NCBI GenBank assembly: GCA_036504215.1
Contig: DASXVO010000054.1
Coordinates: forward strand, 62,001 to 126,000
From: Vicinamibacterales bacterium
GTDB taxonomy: Bacteria > Acidobacteriota > Vicinamibacteria > Vicinamibacterales > Fen-181
DNA length: 64,000 nucleotides
Reading direction: 5' to 3'
The notes below the pieces were generated by a model, which saw nothing but the letters and a program-made list of their open reading frames with translations, was not told where the DNA came from and searched no databases. Each line of letters starts with the position of its first letter. Position 1 is the first letter of the stretch. Position numbers and translations under genes: made by a program. Below are positions 53,927 through 64,000 of this stretch, in pieces.

Positions 53927-56401
53927 CTACTTCGCCGGCGGCTTGGCCAGCGAGATGTCGGCGATGCCGCCCACCCGCTTCGCCATCTCGATCATGGCGG
54001 GGAAGTCCGTGTAGGCGTAGACGACCATCCGCGCGCCGTCGGGCGAGCCGCCCCCATGCATGCACCCCGGAACGCCGGCGCCCGCGGTGAGCCACTCGAT
54101 GAGCCGCGCGATGCGCATCCGTGTCTCGGCCGGCGAATTGGCCTTGAGGTACTTCTGCACGAGGTGGCCGTACCGGCTGTCCACGAGGTCCTGGTACGAC
54201 GGCATGCAGCCGGTCTCGGCGATTCCGCCAGCGATATCCAGGGTCAGCCGCTTCGTCTCGTACGGCAACGAGGCCACGTGCACCTTGTTGGCGTGCGCGA
54301 GGACGGGGTCGGGGAGCCACGCCCCCGATGGATGCTGCGTGCCCATCATCGACGCCGCCAGCCCGACGCCGAACGTCGTCTCGTTGTTGACGATCATCTG
54401 CGTGAGCTTGTCGCGGAACACCTTCTCGTCGAGGCCGTTGGCCCTGGCGATCAGGATTGCCGCGCCGACCATCACATCGCCCTGGCCGGCCACGCACGCC
54501 CCGATGGCGGATCGGTACGGCAGCGTGAAGCGGAAGACCGCCTCGCCAGCGTGGGCGTACTCGCCGCACATGAAGACGCGCGATTTCGGCACGAACACGT
54601 CCTCGAAGAAGATGTACGCCTGCGTGATGCCGCCGCGGGTCACCGGGTTGTCGAAACCGTCCTCCAGATCCCGGTCGTCCGAGGCGTGGCGCGCCTCGAC
54701 GATCGTGATGCCGGGCGCGTCCTTCGGGATGGCGAACGACACGGCGTAGTCGGCGTCCTCGCGGCGCAGCTTCACGCCGGGCATGACGAAGATCTCGTGC
54801 GCGGCGGCCGTTCCGCAGATCATCACCTTCGCCCCTCGCACGACGATGCCGTCGGGGCGGCGCTCGACGATGCGCAGGTACATGTCGGGATCGGCCTGCT
54901 TCGAGGGGCCCAGGCGGCGATTGCCCTTGGGGTCGGTCAGCGCGCCCGACAGCGTGATGTCGCGCTCCTGCGCCGCGACCAGCCATGCCTTCAGGCGCTC
55001 GTGGTAGTCGGTGCCGAGCGCGTGGTCCATGTCCCACGTGGAGGACCACATGGCATTCAGCGCGGCCCATCCCGCGCAGCGCCCTCCCGTGCACGTCCCC
55101 GTCCGCTGGAACATCAGGCGCTTCATCCGGCTGTTGGCGACCATGTCGTCGACCGACCGGATGACCGACAGGTAGCGCGAGATGCGGCGGCCCGTCAGGT
55201 GCGACGTGGTCGTCATCAGATCCTGGTGACGCGGATCGCGCGCGGCCTCGAAGATCTGCGCGTGCCCTTCGACCGTGCGTCGCGTGACGGGATCCTCGAC
55301 GGGATCCTCCACCAGGCGGCCGTGCTTGTAGAGATTGGGCCGCAGGCGGCGCAGCGCGGTCTTGAACTCCTCGGGCGTCTTCGTGTCCTCGGGCGGCTGG
55401 ATCTGCGGCGCCAGGCCTTCGCCCGTTCTCAGGTGGTGAATCAGGGCCGGGAGCACGTCGCCGAGATCTCCCACGATGCCGTAGTCGGCCATCGCGAAGA
55501 TCGGCGCCCTGGCGTCGCTGTTGATCGCCACGATGGTCTTCGCCCCGTGGATGCCGACGGCGTGGTGCATCATGCCGGAGATGCCCGCCGCGATGTACAG
55601 CCTCGGCGCGATGAACTTCCCGCTGGCACCGATCATCTGGTCGGCTCGGGCCCAGCCCTCGTCGACCGGCGGCCGCGTGGCGCCGACCACGCCGTCCAGT
55701 AACTGCGCCAACTCGTCGAGGAGCGCCCAGCGGTCCTTCGAGCCCACGCCGAACCCGCCGCCGACGACCACCTCGGCCGTGGTGAGCGACGCGCTGCCGC
55801 CGGCCGGACGGCGGCGGCGCTCGACCTCGCGCGCCGTGCGGCCGCCAGCCGCGGGGTCCACGGTTTCGCGCACGATTTCAGCCGCCTCGGTCGAAGCCAC
55901 GGGGCCGAACACACCGGCGATGACCGTGGCCATCTGGGGGCGCTGTCGCGGGCAGACGATGTTGGCCATGAGCTGGCCGCCGAAGCCGGGCACGGTCTGG
56001 ACGAGGAGCCCTCGCTCGAGCTTCAAGTCCACACAGTGGGCGCTCAGCCCGGTGCCGAGGCGCGCGGCGAGGCGTGCGGCCAGCGCGGTGTTCTCGTTGT
56101 CGGCGCCGAGCAGCAGCACCTGCGGCTGATGACGCGAGACGGCGCCGGCGAGTGCCCGCGCGTGCCGCACAGTGGAAAACGTCGCCAGCGACGGGTCGTC
56201 CAGCACGCGGATCCTAACGGCGCCGGCGTGCAGGAGCTGCGCGGCCAGCGGCTCGACCTCGTGGCCGATGACGATCGCTTCGACTGGCGCCTGCGCCTGC
56301 GCGGCGAGCTCGTGGGCCTTTCCGAGCAACTCCATCGCAACCGCGTCGATCCGCCCGCCGTGGTGCGACGCATGGACCCAGATGGCGTGGCTGTCGCTCA
56401 T
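53927..56401 (-). CDS. Fusion: ETF alpha + 4-hydroxybutyryl-CoA dehydratase-like flavoprotein
   Basis: A single 824-residue frame. Residues 1-330 are electron-transfer flavoprotein alpha: LLLGADNENTALAARLAARL, then the FAD-binding C-terminal part PRLYIAAGISGMMHHAVGIH, VAINSDARAPIFAMADYGIV. After a linker of about 10 residues, 341-824 match the 4-hydroxybutyryl-CoA dehydratase/HpaB family: LRRLRPNLYKHG, DLMTTTSHLTGRRISRYLSV, FQRTGTCTGGRCAGWAALNA, ALTDPKGNRRLGPSKQADPD. In the dehydratase as I recall it, the cluster ligands are Cys-x3-Cys, His and Cys. Here the pair is Cys437-x4-Cys442, the His site is Tyr629 and Cys636 remains. So a normal [4Fe-4S] site is doubtful. It is translated with ETF beta (ATGA overlap). 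Electrons may pass from the dehydratase-like FAD directly to the fused ETF. Confidence 0.85.
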   Translation of the reverse strand: MSDSHAIWVHASHHGGRIDAVAMELLGKAHELAAQAQAPVEAIVIGHEVEPLAAQLLHAGAVRIRVLDDPSLATFSTVRHARALAGAVSRHQPQVLLLGADNENTALAARLAARLGTGLSAHCVDLKLERGLLVQTVPGFGGQLMANIVCPRQRPQMATVIAGVFGPVASTEAAEIVRETVDPAAGGRTAREVERRRRPAGGSASLTTAEVVVGGGFGVGSKDRWALLDELAQLLDGVVGATRPPVDEGWARADQMIGASGKFIAPRLYIAAGISGMMHHAVGIHGAKTIVAINSDARAPIFAMADYGIVGDLGDVLPALIHHLRTGEGLAPQIQPPEDTKTPEEFKTALRRLRPNLYKHGRLVEDPVEDPVTRRTVEGHAQIFEAARDPRHQDLMTTTSHLTGRRISRYLSVIRSVDDMVANSRMKRLMFQRTGTCTGGRCAGWAALNAMWSSTWDMDHALGTDYHERLKAWLVAAQERDITLSGALTDPKGNRRLGPSKQADPDMYLRIVERRPDGIVVRGAKVMICGTAAAHEIFVMPGVKLRREDADYAVSFAIPKDAPGITIVEARHASDDRDLEDGFDNPVTRGGITQAYIFFEDVFVPKSRVFMCGEYAHAGEAVFRFTLPYRSAIGACVAGQGDVMVGAAILIARANGLDEKVFRDKLTQMIVNNETTFGVGLAASMMGTQHPSGAWLPDPVLAHANKVHVASLPYETKRLTLDIAGGIAETGCMPSYQDLVDSRYGHLVQKYLKANSPAETRMRIARLIEWLTAGAGVPGCMHGGGSPDGARMVVYAYTDFPAMIEMAKRVGGIADISLAKPPAK

Positions 56402-57240
56402 GACGCATGCCTCCGCGTGGCCTTCAGCTTGTCCACCAGTGCCGCCGCCATCTGGCTCGGCGAGCCCTCGAGCATGTCGCCCTTCCGGCCGAGGGACGGC
56501 GCGAAGATGTTGAGCATCTGGGTCGGGGACCCGCTCAGCCCGATCTCATCGGGCCGGAGAGCGAGGTCGGCGGCCGTCCAGCAGGTGACGCCGACCGCCC
56601 CCGACCGCATGATGCCGGTCATCGAGGGCAGGCGCGGCACGTTCACGTCCTTGTCGAAGGTCACGAGCGCCGGCAGTTCACAGTCGTAGACCGCCTCGCC
56701 GTCCTCGACCGCGCAACGCGCGCGGAGCGTGGAGCCGTCCACGGAGAGCGCGGTGACGTGGGTGAGGTCCGGCATGTCCAGCAGTTCCGCGACCTGCGGG
56801 CCCACCTGGGAGGTGCTCCCGTCGAGCGAGTAGCCGCCGCAGAACACCAGATCGACGGCGCCCAGCCTGCGGATCGCGGCGGCCAGGCAGCGGGCGGTGG
56901 CGAGGCTGTCGGCGCCGGCGAACGCCGGATCCGAGAGCAGGTACGCCCGATCGCATCCCATGGCGAGCGACTCGGCCAGCTGTTCCTCCGCGTCCTTCGG
57001 GGCCATCGAGATGACCGTGACGATCCCGTCCGCAGACGTTGCGCGGGACGGCCCCGAGCGTGGTGAAGGGCCGCCCGCGGCAGAGCGCAGGGCGATGGCC
57101 TGCTCGATTGCGTTCCGGTCGAGCGGGTTGATGACGGCCGGAACCTCGCCGCGACGGAGCAGCATCGTCCGCGGGTCGAGCTTGAGCTTGCCCCACTTGC
57201 GGGGGTCCGGCACGGGCTTCATGCAGACGACGATGTTCAT
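56398..57240 (-). CDS. Electron-transfer flavoprotein beta subunit
   Basis: A 280-residue ETF beta. MNIVVCMKPVPDPRKWGKLK, INPLDRNAIEQAIALR, AMGCDRAYLLSDPAFAGADS, LVFCGGYSLDGSTSQVGPQV (the adenine-nucleotide binding loop) and VEDGEAVYDCELPALVTFDK are family features. It pairs with the ETF alpha half of the downstream fusion (4-bp overlap) and accepts electrons from the acyl-CoA dehydrogenase encoded 15 bp upstream. An insertion around 57-70 (GGPSPRSGPSRATSADG) is low in complexity and may be a loop. No ETF:quinone oxidoreductase gene is in the window. Confidence 0.92.
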   Translation of the reverse strand: MNIVVCMKPVPDPRKWGKLKLDPRTMLLRRGEVPAVINPLDRNAIEQAIALRSAAGGPSPRSGPSRATSADGIVTVISMAPKDAEEQLAESLAMGCDRAYLLSDPAFAGADSLATARCLAAAIRRLGAVDLVFCGGYSLDGSTSQVGPQVAELLDMPDLTHVTALSVDGSTLRARCAVEDGEAVYDCELPALVTFDKDVNVPRLPSMTGIMRSGAVGVTCWTAADLALRPDEIGLSGSPTQMLNIFAPSLGRKGDMLEGSPSQMAAALVDKLKATRRHAS

Positions 57241-57255
57241 CTGATCCTCCCCGCT

Positions 57256-58389
57256 TCAGGCGAGCGCCGCGCGCGACACCACCAACTTGCCGACTTCCGT
57301 CGTCCCGCCGGCCGATACGCAGACCATCGCATCGCGGAACAGCCGCTGGACCGGGTACTCCATCATCGTCCCGCACGCGCCGTGGATTTCGATCGCCTTC
57401 TTGGCGGCCTGCACGGCGGCCTCGCTGACGTACATCTTCGCCAGTGTCGTTTCGACGCCGCAGTCCCGGCCCGAGTCCTTGAGCCACGCCGCGTGGTAGC
57501 AGAGCCACCGGGACGCCTGCAACTGCGCGAAGATGTCGGCTATGCCCCACTGGATGGCCTGCAACTGCGCGATCGGCCGGCCGTAGAGCGTGCGCTCCTT
57601 CGCGAACCGCACGGCCTCGTCGTAGCACGCCTGCAGGATGCCGAGCGCGGTGGCGGCCATCCCGGAGCGGCCGACCTCGCTGATGATCCTCAGCGCGATC
57701 GTCATCCCGTCTCCCTCATTGCCGAGCAGGTTCTCGCGCGGCACGTGGCAATCGCGGAAGATCAGCTCGCCCGTGTCGGCGCCACGCAGCCCCAGCTTGT
57801 GCTCGTGCCGGCCCGCGCAGAATCCGGCCGTGCCCTTCTCGACGACGAACGCGCTGATGCCCTTTGGGCCCTCGCCCGTCTTGACCACCGTGACCACCGC
57901 GTCGCTCAGGTGGCAGTTGGTGATGAAGCATTTCCGGCCGGTCAGCACGTAGCCGTCAGGCGCCGGGCGCGCGCTGCTGGCCATGCCGAGCAGGTCGGAG
58001 CCGCCTGTAGGCTCGGTGATCGCGCACGTCCCGAGGTAGTCGCCGCGGCAGAGCGCCGGCAGGTACTTCTCCTTCTGCGCGTCGGTCCCGAAGTCGGCCA
58101 GTGCGGCGGCGCCCATGTGGTGGACCTGCAGGCTGATGCCCACGGCGGCCGACACCCGGCTCACCTCCTCGATCGCCACCGTGCGCGCGAGGTGCCCGAG
58201 GTTCGATCCACCGTGCTCGGCGGGCGTGATGAGCCCGAGGACGCCGAGATCGCCAAGCATCCGCACGAGCGACACGGGGAACTCGTCGCGCTGCTCCATG
58301 TCCTCGACGAGCGGCGCCACGGTCTGCTCGGCGAACTCACGGACCGACCGCCTGACGAGTCTGGCTTCCCTGGGCAGATCGAAATCCAT
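57256..58389 (-). CDS. Acyl-CoA dehydrogenase
   Basis: A 377-residue flavoenzyme that oxidises an acyl-CoA and gives electrons to ETF. From the ATG at 58389 it starts MDFDLPREARLVRRSVREFA. Conserved parts: LGVLGLITPAEHGGSNLGHL, CAITEPTGGSDLLGMASSAR (FAD-binding), FITNCHLSDAVVTVVKTGEG, RTLYGRPIAQLQAIQWGIAD, IEIHGACGTMMEYPVQRLFR and DAMVCVSAGGTTEV. The catalytic-base position (usual Glu in the YxxE segment) is not clear by eye: the C-terminal SAGGTTEV resembles butyryl-CoA or glutaryl-CoA-type ends (YEGT). An upstream start at 58467 adds unrelated residues. First gene of the ETF operon. Confidence 0.9.
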   Translation of the reverse strand: MDFDLPREARLVRRSVREFAEQTVAPLVEDMEQRDEFPVSLVRMLGDLGVLGLITPAEHGGSNLGHLARTVAIEEVSRVSAAVGISLQVHHMGAAALADFGTDAQKEKYLPALCRGDYLGTCAITEPTGGSDLLGMASSARPAPDGYVLTGRKCFITNCHLSDAVVTVVKTGEGPKGISAFVVEKGTAGFCAGRHEHKLGLRGADTGELIFRDCHVPRENLLGNEGDGMTIALRIISEVGRSGMAATALGILQACYDEAVRFAKERTLYGRPIAQLQAIQWGIADIFAQLQASRWLCYHAAWLKDSGRDCGVETTLAKMYVSEAAVQAAKKAIEIHGACGTMMEYPVQRLFRDAMVCVSAGGTTEVGKLVVSRAALA

Positions 58390-58465
58390 GACGACCTCGT
58401 TCGTTGATGCGTGTTGCCGGCGTGACCGGGGGCTGGCCCGGGTGCGACGGGGATCGGACCGGCCC

Positions 58466-58471
58466 ATTATA
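58466..58471 (-). promoter_or_regulatory. Candidate -10 box for the acyl-CoA dehydrogenase operon
   Basis: TATAAT on the minus strand, a perfect -10 hexamer, 77 bp before the ATG at 58389 in an otherwise GC-rich divergent region. No good -35 stands 16-18 bases upstream, so an activator may be needed. The rest of the 257-bp gap (58390-58646) shows no clear gene. Confidence 0.4.
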
Positions 58472-58646
58472 GGCCCAGGCCACCCTACTTCTTCTGACGC
58501 GCCTGGAGCGCCCAGTCGAGCGGGATCCCGGCCGCAGATGCCCGCCCGGCCGAGGGCGTCGGCGATTCCTTGCGATAGTCGTCGAACCGGCCTACATTGC
58601 GATTACCGAGTCGTTCCCTTATTGCATCGAGTGGAGAACAGCGCGC

Positions 58647-59228
58647 ATGGACGAGAGCAAGTCCTATCCGGTTCCATTCGTCCTGATCAGGCGAGCGTTG
58701 GTCGAGCAGGACGGCGAGCCTGCCGAGAACAAGCTCGGGACGGTCGGCAACAACGGTCGCAAGGTGCTCGCTACGCGCGTTCTGCCCGAATTCGGAGAGG
58801 TCGAAGTCACCCGGCCGCAATGGACGGTGCCCGCCGTGCTTCCCACAGGTGATGGGGGCCTCGAGGTGGCGACCTTCACCGAATTCGCGGGCCAGGACCG
58901 CCACAAACACCTTCGGAGCACGGAGATCTACACGGTGCTCAGGGGTCGGCTCTCGATCTACATCGATGACGAACCGCACGTGCTCGACGCATTGGACGAG
59001 GTCGTCATTCTTCCGGGGACCGTGCACGAAGTGGTGCAGGACAAGCGCCGATCTCGTGGTGTGGGTGAAGCCTTCGAACTGCTCGTCCGCGTCCACGCGC
59101 TCAGTTGTTTCGGTGTGGATGACAAGTACGTGCAGTTCGACCGTGGTGGAGCCTGGCACCGATGGAGCGAACTCACGAGAGAGGCTCGGGCCAGGGCGTA
59201 CAAGAGGCAGGGCGATCCGGGTTCGTGA
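58647..59228 (+). CDS. Cupin-domain protein
   Basis: A 193-residue protein with one cupin barrel: FTEFAGQDRHKHLRSTEIYT supplies the His/Glu metal ligands of motif 1 (HxH-like with E), VLRGRLSIYIDDEPHVLDAL, and DEVVILPGTVHEVVQ supplies the motif 2 His. It could be a metal-dependent isomerase, dioxygenase or sugar-binding sensor; no helix-turn-helix is present. A preceding N-terminal strand region (PFVLIRRALVEQDGEPAENK) is unassigned. Single gene, divergent from the acyl-CoA dehydrogenase operon and convergent with the carrier gene. Confidence 0.78.
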   Translation: MDESKSYPVPFVLIRRALVEQDGEPAENKLGTVGNNGRKVLATRVLPEFGEVEVTRPQWTVPAVLPTGDGGLEVATFTEFAGQDRHKHLRSTEIYTVLRGRLSIYIDDEPHVLDALDEVVILPGTVHEVVQDKRRSRGVGEAFELLVRVHALSCFGVDDKYVQFDRGGAWHRWSELTREARARAYKRQGDPGS

Positions 59229-59330
59229 TCTCGTGGTGGCGAGCGGCGGCACGCGCGTCATCCTGGCTGGGATGAATCCGGCACGGACGTAGCCGCAGGA
59301 AGCGCCAGGCCGCCAGGCTCTCTTCGCCGC

Positions 59331-60758
59331 CTACTGGTACGCCAGCTTGACCGCCAGCGCGAGCAGGAGGAGCGCCGTCGGCACGTAGACGAACACCGCG
59401 AAGGTGGCGGCGGCTTTGATGTACTTGAAGAAGTTCACGCCCGCCATCGAGCAGATGGTGAAGGCGATGCCGTCCCACGGCATCCAGAAGTTGAACGCTC
59501 CGCTCGCCAGTTGGAAGGCCAGCACGACGATCTGTTTCGAGAAGTGCAGCACGTCGGCGAGCGGCGCCAGGATGGGCATGACGGTGGCGGCGGTGCCCGA
59601 GGCGCTGCCGAGAAGCGCCGCCATCACCGCGCTCGTCGCGAACATCACGTAGGCGATGACGAACTGCGGCACCTTCGTCAGATAGCCGGCGAAGAAGTTC
59701 AGGATCGTGTCGAGGATGAGGGAGTCGTGCAGGATGAAGTAGAGGATCTGCGCGGCGCTCATCATGATGACGGCGATCATCACGCTGCGCATCCCCTCGA
59801 TGTTCTTGTCGATCATCTCCTTGACATGCAGGCCGCCCGCGACCGGCACCACGATCCCCATCCAGAAGTAGAGCGCGCCGATCTCGGTGAAGCCCCAGCC
59901 GTGGCGCAGCAGCCCCACCATCAGGATGACGAACCCCACGAGCGTGAGCACCAGCGCAAGCGCGCGCCGTGGTGTCAGCGCGGCCGCGCTCGAGTTGTCG
60001 GGCGATGCCCGAAGACGCTGGCGGTTCTCGACGTCCTCGGCCGCAGACAGGGATCGTGACGGATCCCGCTTCACGCGGATCGCATAGCGCATGATCACCG
60101 CGCTCGTGATGGTCATGAAGACGACGAAGCACACGATACGAAAGCCGCTGCCGGAATAGAGCGGCACACCGGCGAGCGCCTGGCCGATGGCCACCGTATA
60201 GGGGTTCGTGATGCCGCACGCGAACCCCACGGCGATGCTCCAGTACATGACGAACACCGCCGACATCGCATCGAAGCCCATTGTCAGCATCAAGGGAGCG
60301 ATGACGAGGATGAAGGGAATGGCCTCCTCGTACATCCCGAAGGTGGCCCCGCAGGCGCCGAGTGCAAAGACGATGATCGGGATGAAGGCGATGCCGAAGC
60401 GGCCGGTCCGCCGCACGAGCGAGTGGATGCCCGCGTCGATCGCACCCGTGGCGATGATGGCGGTCATCGCGCCCGCCGACAGCATGATGACGAACGAGCG
60501 GTCCGCGCCCTCGAGCGCCCCGCGCATGAAGACCGTCCAGAGTTCGCGGAACCCCTGCGGGATCGCCGGCACGAAGTGGAAGGAGCCCGGGACGACGATC
60601 TGCCGCGCGTGTCCCATGACGTCCAGCGAGCGGCGGTCGAAGGTTCCACCCGGGATCACGAACGTGAGCAGCGAGAACAGCACACAGAGGAAGAACATGA
60701 TCACCAGGGGGCTGATGTTCCCCATGGCGTCGATGACTCGCTGGCGCAGGGTCGGCAT
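59331..60758 (-). CDS. YfcC/DcuC-like carrier (arginine or C4-dicarboxylate type)
   Basis: A 475-residue protein with about 12 TM helices. YfcC-like features: ISPLVIMFFLCVLFSLLTFV, IPGGTFDRRS, a hairpin with FALGACGATFGMYEEAIPFI and ITNPYTVAIGQALAGVPLYS, and the repeat half GSASGTAATVMPILAPLADV with WMPWDGIAFTICSMAGVNFF. I choose the ATG at 60758 since GGAG stands 6 bases before it; a GTG at 60776 is the alternative. Likely substrate is an amino acid, dipeptide or dicarboxylate. First gene of an operon with a dipeptidase, a deacylase and an aminotransferase? No: by strand order it is the last, downstream of them, 62 bp after the dipeptidase. Confidence 0.82.
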   Translation of the reverse strand: MPTLRQRVIDAMGNISPLVIMFFLCVLFSLLTFVIPGGTFDRRSLDVMGHARQIVVPGSFHFVPAIPQGFRELWTVFMRGALEGADRSFVIMLSAGAMTAIIATGAIDAGIHSLVRRTGRFGIAFIPIIVFALGACGATFGMYEEAIPFILVIAPLMLTMGFDAMSAVFVMYWSIAVGFACGITNPYTVAIGQALAGVPLYSGSGFRIVCFVVFMTITSAVIMRYAIRVKRDPSRSLSAAEDVENRQRLRASPDNSSAAALTPRRALALVLTLVGFVILMVGLLRHGWGFTEIGALYFWMGIVVPVAGGLHVKEMIDKNIEGMRSVMIAVIMMSAAQILYFILHDSLILDTILNFFAGYLTKVPQFVIAYVMFATSAVMAALLGSASGTAATVMPILAPLADVLHFSKQIVVLAFQLASGAFNFWMPWDGIAFTICSMAGVNFFKYIKAAATFAVFVYVPTALLLLALAVKLAYQ

Positions 60759-60820
60759 CTGATTCTCCAGGAACACCGTGGGCTGGCGAAGCGAGTTCGG
60801 CGGTCTCAGGCGGAGCTTCG

Positions 60821-62101
60821 CTAGAAATCCTCGTGGAACGCCAGCGTCTTCACCTCGACGAGCAGATCGTGCAGTGCGTCAATCGCCCCGGCCGCGCGCT
60901 CCCGATCGAAATCCGTCACCGCCTCGATCATGCCGGACGGGTCGAGGCCGGCCGCGCGCGCCTCCATCGCCGTCAGCGCGGGTTCCGTCTCTGCCTCGAA
61001 CGACCGCCACCGGCTGCGCACGACCTCGATGCATCGCGGGTAGTGGGCATCGACGAGCTTCGCGAGTTCCGTGAACAGCCAGTACGCCGAGTCTTGTGCG
61101 TAGCGGCCCCCGGCCGTCGCGTAGCGGGTCTCGACGTCCGCGATGCCGACGTGGAACGGCACGAACACGCCGGTCAGCGATGTCGAGAGGCAGGACCACA
61201 TCCGGTGCGCCAGTTCCGGCCGCATGCCCCGGCGCGGTTCGAGGACGGTGCAGGCCTCGGTGTTCATGCGCGCCACCGTTCGCACGGACGTGCGGAACGG
61301 CGACCCGTCGGGCCTCGTGCAGTAGAGTGGCGTGCCCTCGTAGACCTCGCGCAGCAACGTCATGAGATCCGGCACGGTCACGGTGCCGAGAGCTGACACC
61401 CGCGCCTCGAGCACGTTGTGTCGGTCGAGGTTGTAGCGGTCCGCCTGGTTCGCTGGGTCGCCGAACGCAGTGGCGAAGTCCGCGGCCGCGCCCATCGTCG
61501 CTCCATGACCTGGCTCTCCTGCGGTGCCGATGCGATAGCAATTCGCGCGAATCGACACCTCGCCATCGCCGACGCGCTCGGCGGCCCAGTGGCCGTCCCT
61601 CGCCAGTTCCACCCACCAGGCCTCGTCCGGATCCGCAACGGCCACCATCGTTCCCGAGTCGCAGCTCAGACCCTGGTGTTCACACAACTCACCGACCAGC
61701 GCCGCACCCTCTCGGGCGGAGGTCGCCCGCTCGAGCACGAGTTGCAGGAACTCGGTCCAGATGACGCCGCCCGGAATCACGTCGTACATCCGATCTTCCG
61801 GCACGCCCTTCATGATGGCCATGTTGTTGGACACCGCCACGCCGTGCTCGTTGATGCCGAAGGTGTGCTCGCCCGGGTAGTGGCGCTTGTCGAAAATCTT
61901 CGCGGCCAGGTGGCGAACCAGATGGGCGGGCTGCGACAGCGTGCCCGACGAGTGCAGCGGGAACCGCTCGTCGGGCGCGGGATCGCGGGCGGGCACAATC
62001 GTCACCTTGTGCGCCGAGTTCCGGCCCAGTTCCTCGCTGTGGGCCAGCAGAACGCATCCGGTCGCGCTACGGTTCTTCCCGACTACGATTGTCGTGCACA
62101 C
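60821..62101 (-). CDS. C69-family dipeptidase (Ntn hydrolase)
   Basis: A 426-residue dipeptidase of the PepD/C69 type. The mature enzyme needs an N-terminal Cys; here a GTG at 62101 is followed at once by the codon for that Cys (GTG TGC ACG ACA: M-CTTIVVGKNRSATG), so I place the start there, not at 62227. Other motifs: CVLLAHSEELGRNSAHKVTI, GINEHGVAVSNNMAIMKGVP, CDSGTMVAVADPDEAWWVEL, and the C-terminal GTPLYCTRPDGSPFRTSVRT. It overlaps the upstream deacylase gene by 19 bp. It should cleave dipeptides in the cytoplasm, with products feeding the aminotransferase. Confidence 0.88.
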   Translation of the reverse strand: MCTTIVVGKNRSATGCVLLAHSEELGRNSAHKVTIVPARDPAPDERFPLHSSGTLSQPAHLVRHLAAKIFDKRHYPGEHTFGINEHGVAVSNNMAIMKGVPEDRMYDVIPGGVIWTEFLQLVLERATSAREGAALVGELCEHQGLSCDSGTMVAVADPDEAWWVELARDGHWAAERVGDGEVSIRANCYRIGTAGEPGHGATMGAAADFATAFGDPANQADRYNLDRHNVLEARVSALGTVTVPDLMTLLREVYEGTPLYCTRPDGSPFRTSVRTVARMNTEACTVLEPRRGMRPELAHRMWSCLSTSLTGVFVPFHVGIADVETRYATAGGRYAQDSAYWLFTELAKLVDAHYPRCIEVVRSRWRSFEAETEPALTAMEARAAGLDPSGMIEAVTDFDRERAAGAIDALHDLLVEVKTLAFHEDF

Positions 62102-62964
62102 AACGACTCCCCGGTTGAGGCCCCGAAGAACGCGTCGATGAGCGCGACGTACAGGTCCACGCGCTCGGCGAGCGGCGGTGAATCCGGCGAGCGCAGGACC
62201 GTCTCCACCGTGAGCACGGGACTGCATCCGATGCGCACGGCAAGCAACTCGTCAACCGATCCATCCGCGCTGTCCACGATGAGGCCGTCGACGATGCCCT
62301 CCCCGAAACGGGTGACCCCCTCGCGCACCAGCGGCAGGCGCGACTGGGCCAGGAACTCCCGAACACGGCGCGTCGCCGGCTGAACCATCCCGTCGGGACC
62401 CGTGACGTAGAGGTACGTTCCCCTTCCATCGAACTGGTACCCCGATGCCTCGTAGACCGGATCCTCGTGGAGGTCGAGTACCGCTGCGCCTGGGCGAATC
62501 CTGATGCCGCGCATCACGAAGTCGGTGATCGCTGCGGCTTCGGCACACGCCGGCACCACCGCGCGCCCCAGCAGGTGGTCGCTGTCGGAGACGCTTTGCC
62601 CGGAGGGCCCGTACCGCTGATGGTGCAGGTAGCCCCAGGGATTGAGCAGCGGCAGCACCAGCAATCGGAGCGCACGCCCGCGCTCGATCATCGTCGGGAC
62701 GCCGCGCGCAAGAGCGAGCGCCCCGGCCGGTTCGCGGCCGTGAATGCCGCCAATCAAGACGGCATCCACCTCGTCCGCGTTCGCATACGCGCGAACCGGC
62801 AGCGTGCCGCCGGATGGCGCCGGCTGTGTCGCTATTTCGATCGTCCGCCACCCGGCCGATTCGAGGGCGTCGAATCCTGCGAGCACGGCGGCGAGTGGCG
62901 GGCGGCCGTCGCCCGCCGGCGGCACGACGAAACAGTCGGACGCGAGCCCGGCATGTGAGCGCAT
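62083..62964 (-). CDS. M14-type deacylase/carboxypeptidase (aspartoacylase-like)
   Basis: A 293-residue zinc enzyme without a signal peptide. Zinc ligands: VDAVLIGGIHGREPAGALAL (HxxE) and AAVLDLHEDPVYEASGYQFD (His). LLNPWGYLHHQRYGPSG is typical of the M14/AstE group. Compared with the exported relative at 37514 it is shorter and cytoplasmic. It may free amino acids from N-acylated or peptide substrates. It sits 7 bp after the aminotransferase and overlaps the C69 dipeptidase gene, so the three are co-expressed. Confidence 0.83.
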   Translation of the reverse strand: MRSHAGLASDCFVVPPAGDGRPPLAAVLAGFDALESAGWRTIEIATQPAPSGGTLPVRAYANADEVDAVLIGGIHGREPAGALALARGVPTMIERGRALRLLVLPLLNPWGYLHHQRYGPSGQSVSDSDHLLGRAVVPACAEAAAITDFVMRGIRIRPGAAVLDLHEDPVYEASGYQFDGRGTYLYVTGPDGMVQPATRRVREFLAQSRLPLVREGVTRFGEGIVDGLIVDSADGSVDELLAVRIGCSPVLTVETVLRSPDSPPLAERVDLYVALIDAFFGASTGESLCARQS

Positions 62965-62971
62965 GGAACGC

Positions 62972-64000
62972 CTAGCCGCGCGCGAGGTGTGTTCGCGCCT
63001 CGTTCAAGCTCGCCTCGAGCAGGACGAGCGCCTCCTCGACGTTCGCCTGCGACACCAGCAGCGGCGGCATGAAGCGAATCGTGCTCGCCCCGCACGACAG
63101 GAGGAGCAGGCCGTTGTGGAACGCGCGTGTCACCACGGCATCGCACAGCGCCTTGGCCGGCTGCTTCGACTGGCGATCCGTCACCAGTTCCATGCCGAGG
63201 AAGAGCCCCTTGCCGCGCACGTCGCCGATTTCCGGATGGCGTTCCTGGAGCGCCTGCAACCGTGCCAGAAGACCGAGCCCGACCTCGGCCGCGTTGGCCA
63301 TGTAGCGCTGCTCCACGAGGTCGAGCGTGGCGAGCGCCGCCGCGCAGCAGATCGGGTTGCCGCCGTAGGTGTTGCCGTGCGCCCCTCTCGGCCAGGCCCG
63401 CATCAGGCTCTTGCGTGCGGCCATCAGGCCGATCGGCATTCCGCTGCCGAGGCCCTTCGCGAGTGTGAGAATGTCCGGCTGCACGCCCCAATGCTCGCAC
63501 GCGAACATCCGGCCCGTTCTCCCGACGCCGGCCTGCACCTCGTCGAAGATCAGCAGGATGCCGTGGCGATCGCAGAGCGCACGCAGGCTGGCCAGAAATC
63601 TGTCCGGCGGCACCAGGTAGCCGCCTTCGCCCTGGAGCGGCTCCACGAGGACGGCGGCAACCTCGCCGGGCGGAACATTGCCCTGGAACAGCATCTCCTC
63701 GATGTAGCGGATGACGGCCTGTCCCTGATCCTGGCCCGCAAACAGCGGCCGGTACGGATTCGGATACGGCACGTGCGTCACCCCGGGCATCGTCGGGAAG
63801 AATCCCTTCTGCTGGGTGTACTTGCTGGACGTGAACGCCAGCGAGCCCATCGTCCTGCCGTGGAAGCCGCCGAGGAAGCCGATGAAGCGGCTCCGGCCGG
63901 TGGCGTAGCGCGCCAGCTTCAGGGCGGCTTCCACCGCCTCGGTGCCCGACTGGCAGAAGAAGCTCATCGCCGGTTCGCTCATCGGAGCGAGGCCTGCGAT
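62972..64000 (-). CDS. Class III PLP aminotransferase (4-aminobutyrate/acetylornithine type), partial
   Basis: The 5' end lies beyond the window; 342 codons are visible. Motifs: FFCQSGTEAVEAALKLARYA, GFHGRTMGSLAFTSSKYTQQ, LVEPLQGEGGYLVPPDRFLA, LLIFDEVQAGVGRTGRMFAC (Asp binding PLP nitrogen), DILTLAKGLGSGMPIGLMAA (PLP lysine) and NTYGGNPICCAAALATLDLV. The sequence is closest to 4-aminobutyrate or acetylornithine/acetyl-lysine aminotransferases. It is upstream of the deacylase in the operon, so it probably transaminates the amino acid set free by it. The exact substrate cannot be told. Confidence 0.9.
   Translation of the reverse strand: MAGLAPMSEPAMSFFCQSGTEAVEAALKLARYATGRSRFIGFLGGFHGRTMGSLAFTSSKYTQQKGFFPTMPGVTHVPYPNPYRPLFAGQDQGQAVIRYIEEMLFQGNVPPGEVAAVLVEPLQGEGGYLVPPDRFLASLRALCDRHGILLIFDEVQAGVGRTGRMFACEHWGVQPDILTLAKGLGSGMPIGLMAARKSLMRAWPRGAHGNTYGGNPICCAAALATLDLVEQRYMANAAEVGLGLLARLQALQERHPEIGDVRGKGLFLGMELVTDRQSKQPAKALCDAVVTRAFHNGLLLLSCGASTIRFMPPLLVSQANVEEALVLLEASLNEARTHLARG

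What the first reader, a model, noticed from the sequence alone, without database searches (positions are those of the whole stretch)
53927..56401. ETF alpha fused in one chain to a 4-hydroxybutyryl-CoA dehydratase-like flavoprotein
Seen: one uninterrupted 824-codon frame with a full ETF alpha (1-330) and a full dehydratase/HpaB-like domain (341-824), coupled to ETF beta and an acyl-CoA dehydrogenase. Known: ETF normally takes electrons from separate dehydrogenases, and the dehydratase performs no net redox. Inference: the fusion suggests a dehydratase-like domain that really oxidises or reduces an acyl-CoA and hands electrons straight to ETF, i.e. a new enzyme complex.
Basis: partly seen in the sequence, partly recalled or inferred. 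Interest (0 to 1): 0.82.

Follow-up and report, generated by a model that had tools for sequence, protein, structure and literature searches.

The report
ETF fused to altered dehydratase-fold flavoprotein
Four related bacterial genomes encode an electron-carrier protein fused to a relative of the enzyme 4-hydroxybutyryl-CoA dehydratase whose dehydration residues are gone but whose three cluster-binding cysteines remain, which suggests that an unusual radical-type dehydratase has been turned into a redox enzyme wired directly to an electron carrier.

Summary
The fusion is real. One 824-codon frame on the minus strand (56401..53930) joins a complete ETF alpha (1-327) by a short flexible linker to a complete 4-hydroxybutyryl-CoA dehydratase (4HBD)-fold domain (339-816). 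The same fusion occurs in three other genomes (85, 83, 73% identity), in two of them in the order ACAD - etfB - etfA::4HBD-like; the third contig is cut. It is not a sequencing error. The surprise is the active site: the domain keeps the three 4HBD cluster cysteines but has lost the cluster histidine (H292Y) and E257, Y296, K300 and E455, and has Cys for T190; nearly all of 26 cluster-bearing relatives keep these. A stand-alone relative (54%) in a distant lineage shares the altered site, which probably predates the fusion. The ETF is of the bifurcating type but lacks the arginine essential for bifurcation (R to V), and the partner ACAD lacks the usual catalytic glutamate. The 4HBD-fold domain is better conserved than the ETF part. 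Most likely this is a self-contained, non-bifurcating ACAD - ETF - flavo/Fe-S redox complex, not a dehydratase. New variant of known kinds.

The parts
53927..56401 (-). etfA::4HBD-like fusion gene, 824 codons plus stop
   Evidence: conserved in G003, G004, G006
55421..56401 (-). ETF alpha domain, residues 1-327
   Evidence: Pfam ETF and ETF_alpha; 7koe_B E 7e-65; structure match
55991..55993 (-). Val137 at the position of Thermotoga maritima EtfB Arg140, which is essential for bifurcation
   Evidence: alignments; PMC10734219
55388..55420 (-). linker, residues 328-338
   Evidence: pLDDT below 50 at 328-333; the region 326-345 is open and 70-80% identical in three other genomes
53954..55387 (-). 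4HBD-fold (HpaB_N + HpaB) domain, residues 339-816
   Evidence: Z 51-53 to 1u8v/6vjr
55076..55093 (-). CTGGRC, Cys437 and Cys442 = AbfD Cys99 and Cys103 with one extra residue between them
54815..54817 (-). Cys529 at the position of AbfD Thr190
   Evidence: 4 of 4 in the fusion clade, 0 of 26 in cluster-bearing relatives
54494..54517 (-). Tyr629 (AbfD His292) to Cys636 (AbfD Cys299): histidine ligand position replaced, cysteine kept
54062..54064 (-). Cys780, extra conserved cysteine next to the AbfD Glu455 position (which is Gly)
   Evidence: masked in G252
54206..54208 (-). Cys732, extra conserved cysteine in an insertion
   Evidence: 4 of 4 in the fusion clade, absent in others
56398..57240 (-). 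etfB, overlaps the fusion start (ATGA)
   Evidence: Pfam ETF; closest PDB CarD 6fah_B
57256..58467 (-). acyl-CoA dehydrogenase family protein; usual catalytic Glu replaced (SAGGT at 385)
   Evidence: Pfam
59331..64000 (-). neighbouring operon-like run: DcuC/YfcC carrier, C69 dipeptidase, weak AstE/AspA-like hit, class III aminotransferase (continues past the window with two CoA-transferase subunits and an aldehyde dehydrogenase); not found near the other copies of the module

Best explanation
A conserved three-gene module, acyl-CoA dehydrogenase family protein - ETF beta - (ETF alpha fused to a 4HBD-fold domain), encodes a self-contained redox complex. The 4HBD-fold domain has stopped being a dehydratase/isomerase. 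It probably still holds FAD and an iron-sulfur cluster on three (or four) cysteines and acts as a redox partner, permanently tethered to the ETF shuttle, that oxidises or reduces a CoA-linked substrate. The ETF, no longer bifurcating, passes electrons between that flavin/cluster centre and the ACAD flavin. Shown here: the fusion, its conservation, the three-gene order in three of four genomes, the residue substitutions and the strong conservation. Inferred: cofactors, substrate, direction of electron flow and the complex itself.
For: Fusion conserved in four genomes of one family, with ACAD-etfB directly upstream where the contig reaches. The fused domain belongs with the 4HBD clade, not the HpaB monooxygenases (tree; Z 51-53 against 39 or less). 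Cys99, Cys103 and Cys299 are kept while H292, E257, Y296 and K300 are replaced in all members checked and E455 in all three fused copies that reach it; 26 cluster-bearing relatives keep H292 and K300 in all 26, Y296 in 25, E257 in 24. The domain is more conserved than the ETF part (90% against 77% with G003, 82% against 61% with G006; dN 0.06 against 0.16 and 0.12 against 0.32), as expected of the working centre and not of decay. The ETF lacks the arginine without which T. maritima EtfABCX cannot bifurcate, so a dedicated non-bifurcating role is likely; the genome has a second, ordinary ETF. Precedents: an ETF carrying electrons directly between two flavoenzymes encoded in one cluster in Fusobacterium (PMC12630350, abstract), and Fe-S domains fused to ETF alpha as redox relay in CarE and Ldh-EtfAB (PMC9232219).
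Against: No biochemistry. The catalytic base of the ACAD is also missing from its usual place, so either flavoenzyme could be catalytically inert. A stand-alone member of the altered clade (G252, 54%) shows no ETF gene within about 10 kb on either side, so the domain can exist without a tethered ETF. The fourth cluster ligand is unknown, and only four sequences define the clade. The tool gives no coordinates, so the position of Cys529 relative to the cluster could not be measured.
Confidence: 0.5

Rival explanations
1. Channelling: the fused domain is still a dehydratase or double-bond isomerase that makes an enoyl-CoA and hands it to the neighbouring ACAD/ETF for reduction, as in 4-aminobutyrate fermentation.
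For: In G273 and G528 of the same phylum a canonical AbfD is encoded with a CoA-transferase-like gene, dehydrogenases, an ACAD and ETF genes. In the window genome the module lies beside an aminotransferase and CoA-transferase subunits.
Against: His292, Glu257, Tyr296 and Lys300 are replaced in all members, and Glu455 in the fused copies. The other fusion-bearing loci lack the pathway neighbours. The ACAD lacks the usual catalytic glutamate.
Confidence: 0.15
2. Relay or scaffold: the 4HBD-fold domain binds no substrate and serves as a tetrameric platform or a flavin/cluster wire between ETF and another partner, like the ferredoxin domains fused to CarE and LctC.
For: All catalytic side chains tested are gone while the cluster cysteines are kept and extra cysteines are added; Fe-S domains fused to ETF alpha are known to act as relays (PMC9232219).
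Against: The domain is better conserved than the ETF part; a stand-alone homologue with the same altered site exists; a 480-residue substrate-binding fold is a costly relay.
Confidence: 0.22
3. Cluster-free enzyme: the cysteines have another role (a Cys near the flavin, or a disulfide) and the domain is a flavin-only acyl-CoA oxidoreductase or lyase of the ACAD superfamily fold.
For: The Cys99-Cys103 spacing is changed and the histidine ligand is lost; a new Cys529 lies at the position that, from memory, faces flavin N5 in this fold.
Against: All three cluster cysteines are kept in all fusion-clade sequences, whereas cluster-free HpaB-type relatives in the same order have none of them.
Confidence: 0.1
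4. Sequencing artefact, assembly chimera or decaying gene.
For: None found. Only draft assemblies are available.
Against: The same fusion in four independent assemblies; dN below dS in both domains and in the linker region.
Confidence: 0.02

Closest known systems
4-hydroxybutyryl-CoA dehydratase AbfD, Clostridium aminobutyricum (1u8v), and the archaeal 4HBD/vinylacetyl-CoA isomerase (6vjr)
   Same: Whole fold (473-477 residues aligned, rmsd 1.5-1.7, 37-40% identity); cysteines 99, 103 and 299 present
   Different: His292, Glu257, Tyr296, Lys300 and Glu455 replaced, Thr190 to Cys, Cys99-Cys103 one residue further apart, extra conserved cysteines; fused to ETF alpha
Bifurcating ETF complexes CarCDE (6fah), Bcd-EtfAB (5ol2), EtfABCX (7koe), Ldh-EtfAB (7qh2)
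   Same: Closest solved relatives of both ETF subunits; ACAD partner as in CarC and Bcd; precedent of Fe-S domains fused to ETF alpha
   Different: The arginine next to the bifurcating flavin is Val; the fused domain is C-terminal and a whole enzyme fold, not an N-terminal ferredoxin
Ldh-ETF-Bcd shuttle of Fusobacterium nucleatum (PMC12630350)
   Same: ETF carries electrons directly between two flavoenzymes of one cluster (functional analogue)
   Different: Separate proteins; a lactate dehydrogenase, not a 4HBD-fold protein
4-hydroxyphenylacetate 3-monooxygenase HpaB
   Same: Pfam family and overall fold
   Different: More distant in structure and tree; cluster-free HpaB-type relatives lack the cysteines

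Membership tests
[quoted passage not shown]
   tree places the fusion clade beside the AbfD/VDI clade, 100/98
[quoted passage not shown]
   all three present in window, G003, G006 and G252, though spacing is CxxxxC
[quoted passage not shown]
   Tyr in 4 of 4; His in 26 of 26 cluster-bearing relatives (the 26 were chosen by having Cys99 and His292, but among all aligned sequences with the three cysteines only the fusion clade and one Desulfobacterales clade lack the His)
[quoted passage not shown]
   Gln, Ile, Val, Gly, Cys; Glu455 could not be read in G252 (masked)
[quoted passage not shown]
   needs purified protein
HpaB flavin monooxygenase | closest to HpaB oxygenases rather than 4HBD | tested here: not met
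   tree; Z 39 or less against 51-53; NCBIfam HpaB-1 score 135.8 against cut-off 480.2
ETF alpha subunit | ETF and ETF_alpha domains, paired with etfB | tested here: met
Bifurcating ETF | closest solved relatives are bifurcating ETFs | tested here: met
Bifurcating ETF | arginine in RPxFGG next to the bifurcating FAD (T. maritima EtfB R140) | tested here: not met
   Val in all four fusions; R140M/Q abolish bifurcation (PMC10734219)
Acyl-CoA dehydrogenase (57256-58467) | catalytic Glu in the C-terminal YEGT motif | tested here: not met
   SAGGT in window, G004 and G006
Acyl-CoA dehydrogenase (57256-58467) | catalytic base relocated to the other helix, as in isovaleryl-CoA dehydrogenase | tested here: inconclusive
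   Gly at the usual relocated position; an invariant Glu264 two to three residues earlier with a one-residue insertion

The most novel reading that the evidence does not exclude
A radical dehydratase fold has been converted into a genuine acyl-CoA redox enzyme that keeps its Fe-S/flavin pair, with an all-cysteine cluster, and is covalently tethered to a dedicated, non-bifurcating ETF that exchanges electrons with a second flavoenzyme, so that two acyl-CoA conversions are coupled inside one complex.
Probability: 0.35. Interest if true: 0.82.

Novelty: new variant of a known kind. Interest (0 to 1): 0.62.

Why it matters
4HBD is known for using FAD and a [4Fe-4S] cluster in a reaction without net redox change. 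A natural descendant that lost the dehydration residues, kept the cluster cysteines and is fused to an electron carrier would show how such a centre becomes a true oxidoreductase, and would be the first ETF covalently joined to an enzyme of this fold that I could find. It also offers a natural test of the bifurcation arginine, because here evolution removed it from an ETF of the bifurcating lineage. The searches of the held literature found no description of the fusion, but most subscription papers are not held.

Tried and rejected
Genome-collection scan with the whole fusion: only stand-alone Desulfobacterales relatives, because exact short peptides were needed; the own genome may be left out there, so this is weak evidence on rarity. 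Searches of the classes of G467 and G519 (311 genomes) at a strict threshold found nothing; they contain no known positive, so they show little. Class of G252: only G252 itself. Plasmids: only canonical stand-alone 4HBD relatives or EtfA alone; phages: none. The ORF 59261..58488 on the minus strand was taken at first for a gene and dropped: no family match, poor codon signal, and a cupin gene lies on the other strand. The aminotransferase / CoA-transferase neighbours were considered as the pathway of the module, but they are not near the copies in G004 and G006, so they are not claimed as parts of it. The residue roles in AbfD (which residue touches flavin N5, which is the catalytic base) are from memory; the structure paper is not held.

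Full report
Observation. The frame 56401..53927 on the minus strand encodes 824 residues without a stop. Pfam finds ETF (8-182), ETF_alpha (206-284), HpaB_N (342-611) and HpaB (619-810). By sequence the closest solved structures are 4-hydroxybutyryl-CoA dehydratase 1u8v for 342-813 and bifurcating-type ETF alpha chains for 1-325. A predicted model has mean pLDDT 83.5 with a low-confidence linker at 328-333. The C-terminal part superposes on 6vjr and 1u8v with Z 53 and 51 over 473-477 residues at 1.5-1.7 A, against Z 39 or less for HpaB monooxygenases; the N-terminal part matches ETF alpha.

Not an error. In 149 relatives the same single-frame fusion was found in G006 (another genus of the same family, 73% identity, complete, 825 aa), G003 (85%, contig starts inside the ETF part) and G004 (83%, contig ends inside the second domain). 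Three other members of the family (G001, G002, G005) gave no match in the HpaB domain at the strict threshold, two of them only 83% complete. The linker is open in all, and dN is well below dS in both domains. The second domain is more conserved than the first: 90% against 77% identity with G003 and 82% against 61% with G006.

The module. In G004 and G006 the order ACAD - etfB - fusion is the same as in the window; in G003 the contig begins inside the fusion. In the window genome the module has upstream of it a run of genes on the same strand: DcuC/YfcC carrier, C69 dipeptidase, a weak AstE/AspA-like protein and a class III aminotransferase that starts beyond the window, then two CoA-transferase subunits and an aldehyde dehydrogenase close to glutamate-semialdehyde dehydrogenases, with a divergent 3-oxoadipyl-CoA thiolase. 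Those neighbours are not near the copies in G004 and G006, so I do not count them as parts; they only suggest amino-acid and CoA-ester metabolism. The genome has one HpaB-family gene, a second, ordinary EtfBA pair and no match to the Fe-S domain of ETF-quinone oxidoreductase.

The active site. I aligned the domain with AbfD, its archaeal relative and relatives from the searches, 48 sequences in all (AbfD and VDI sequences taken from the alignments). 26 sequences carry the cluster cysteines together with His292. In the window, G003, G006 and G252 the cysteines equivalent to Cys99, Cys103 and Cys299 are kept, the first two with one extra residue between them (CTGGRC), but His292 is Tyr, Glu257 is Gln, Tyr296 is Ile, Lys300 is Val and Thr190 is Cys; Glu455 is Gly in the three fused copies and masked in G252. 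The 26 relatives have Lys300 in 26, Thr190 and Tyr296 in 25, Glu257 in 24. Two further cysteines (732, in an insertion; 780, beside the Glu455 position) are specific to the clade, the second unread in G252. The residues of 4HBD chemistry are therefore gone and the cluster site is kept in altered form. The assignment of roles to these AbfD residues is from my own knowledge, since the structure paper is not held.

Evolution. The tree joins the fusions with G252, a stand-alone gene in a distant lineage of the same phylum, at 100/100 on a long branch, as sister (100/98) to the AbfD/isomerase clade. G252 carries the same signature (where its sequence is not masked) and has no ETF or ACAD gene in about 10 kb either side. 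The altered site thus most likely came first and the fusion later. A second diverged clade in Desulfobacterales (CxxxxC, Gln at 292) is separate. The join of a long branch is to be read with care, as the tree program itself warns.

The ETF and the ACAD. The closest solved relatives of EtfB are CarD and the Bcd and other bifurcating ETF small subunits. In the large subunit the motif RPxFGG, whose arginine lies 3.1 A from the bifurcating FAD of T. maritima and is essential for bifurcation (PMC10734219), reads VPGFGG in all four fusions, whereas all ten ordinary EtfA proteins aligned have the Arg. Bifurcation is therefore unlikely. The ACAD has SAGGT where butyryl-CoA dehydrogenases have YEGT, so the usual catalytic Glu is missing in all three copies; an invariant Glu264 on the other helix is a possible substitute.

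Mechanism. The best-supported reading is a dedicated non-bifurcating electron-transfer module in which the 4HBD-fold domain is a flavin/Fe-S redox partner fixed to ETF alpha and the ACAD is the other partner. ETF shuttling between two flavoenzymes of one cluster is known from Fusobacterium (PMC12630350, abstract), and Fe-S domains fused to ETF alpha act as relays in Ldh-EtfAB (PMC9232219). Fusion, conservation and residue changes are shown; cofactors, substrate, direction and complex formation are inferred. Rivals are a channelling dehydratase, a substrate-free relay, and a cluster-free flavoenzyme.

Verdict. It is a new variant built from known parts, with unusual losses in all three components at once. 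Prior description was not found in the held papers, which is weak evidence. The distribution outside this family is unknown, because collection scans were limited.

Noticed in passing
L088, L089, L090, L091 (Desulfobacterales MAGs; L003 9524-10948, L005 10001-11425): A second diverged 4HBD clade with CxxxxC spacing, Ser at 190 and 257, Gln at 292 and Thr at 296 but Lys300 and Glu455 kept; stand-alone, in genomes that also carry canonical AbfD-like copies (L085-L087).
   Followed up: partly
L074 and L075 (G528, G273): A canonical gene cluster with AbfD, a CoA-transferase-like gene, alcohol and aldehyde dehydrogenase-like genes, an ACAD and ETF genes in the same phylum; only the AbfD, ACAD and ETF matches were checked, the others are named from their sequence starts.
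   Followed up: partly
56398-57240: The window's EtfB has an insertion of about 14 residues (SPRSGPSRATSADG region) that the EtfB proteins of G004 and G006 lack.
   Followed up: no
58647-59228: A plus-strand cupin-domain gene (PF07883, just above cut-off) lies between the ACAD and the DcuC carrier, so the module may have its own promoter.
   Followed up: no
L083 6963-8099 (G000:C54, beyond the window): A saccharopine-dehydrogenase family protein not far from the aldehyde dehydrogenase, which hints at lysine or related amino-acid metabolism.
   Followed up: no
L042-L046 (G115, G103, G111, G025, G078): HpaB-family proteins of the same order without any of the cluster cysteines, a separate cluster-free clade.
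   Followed up: partly
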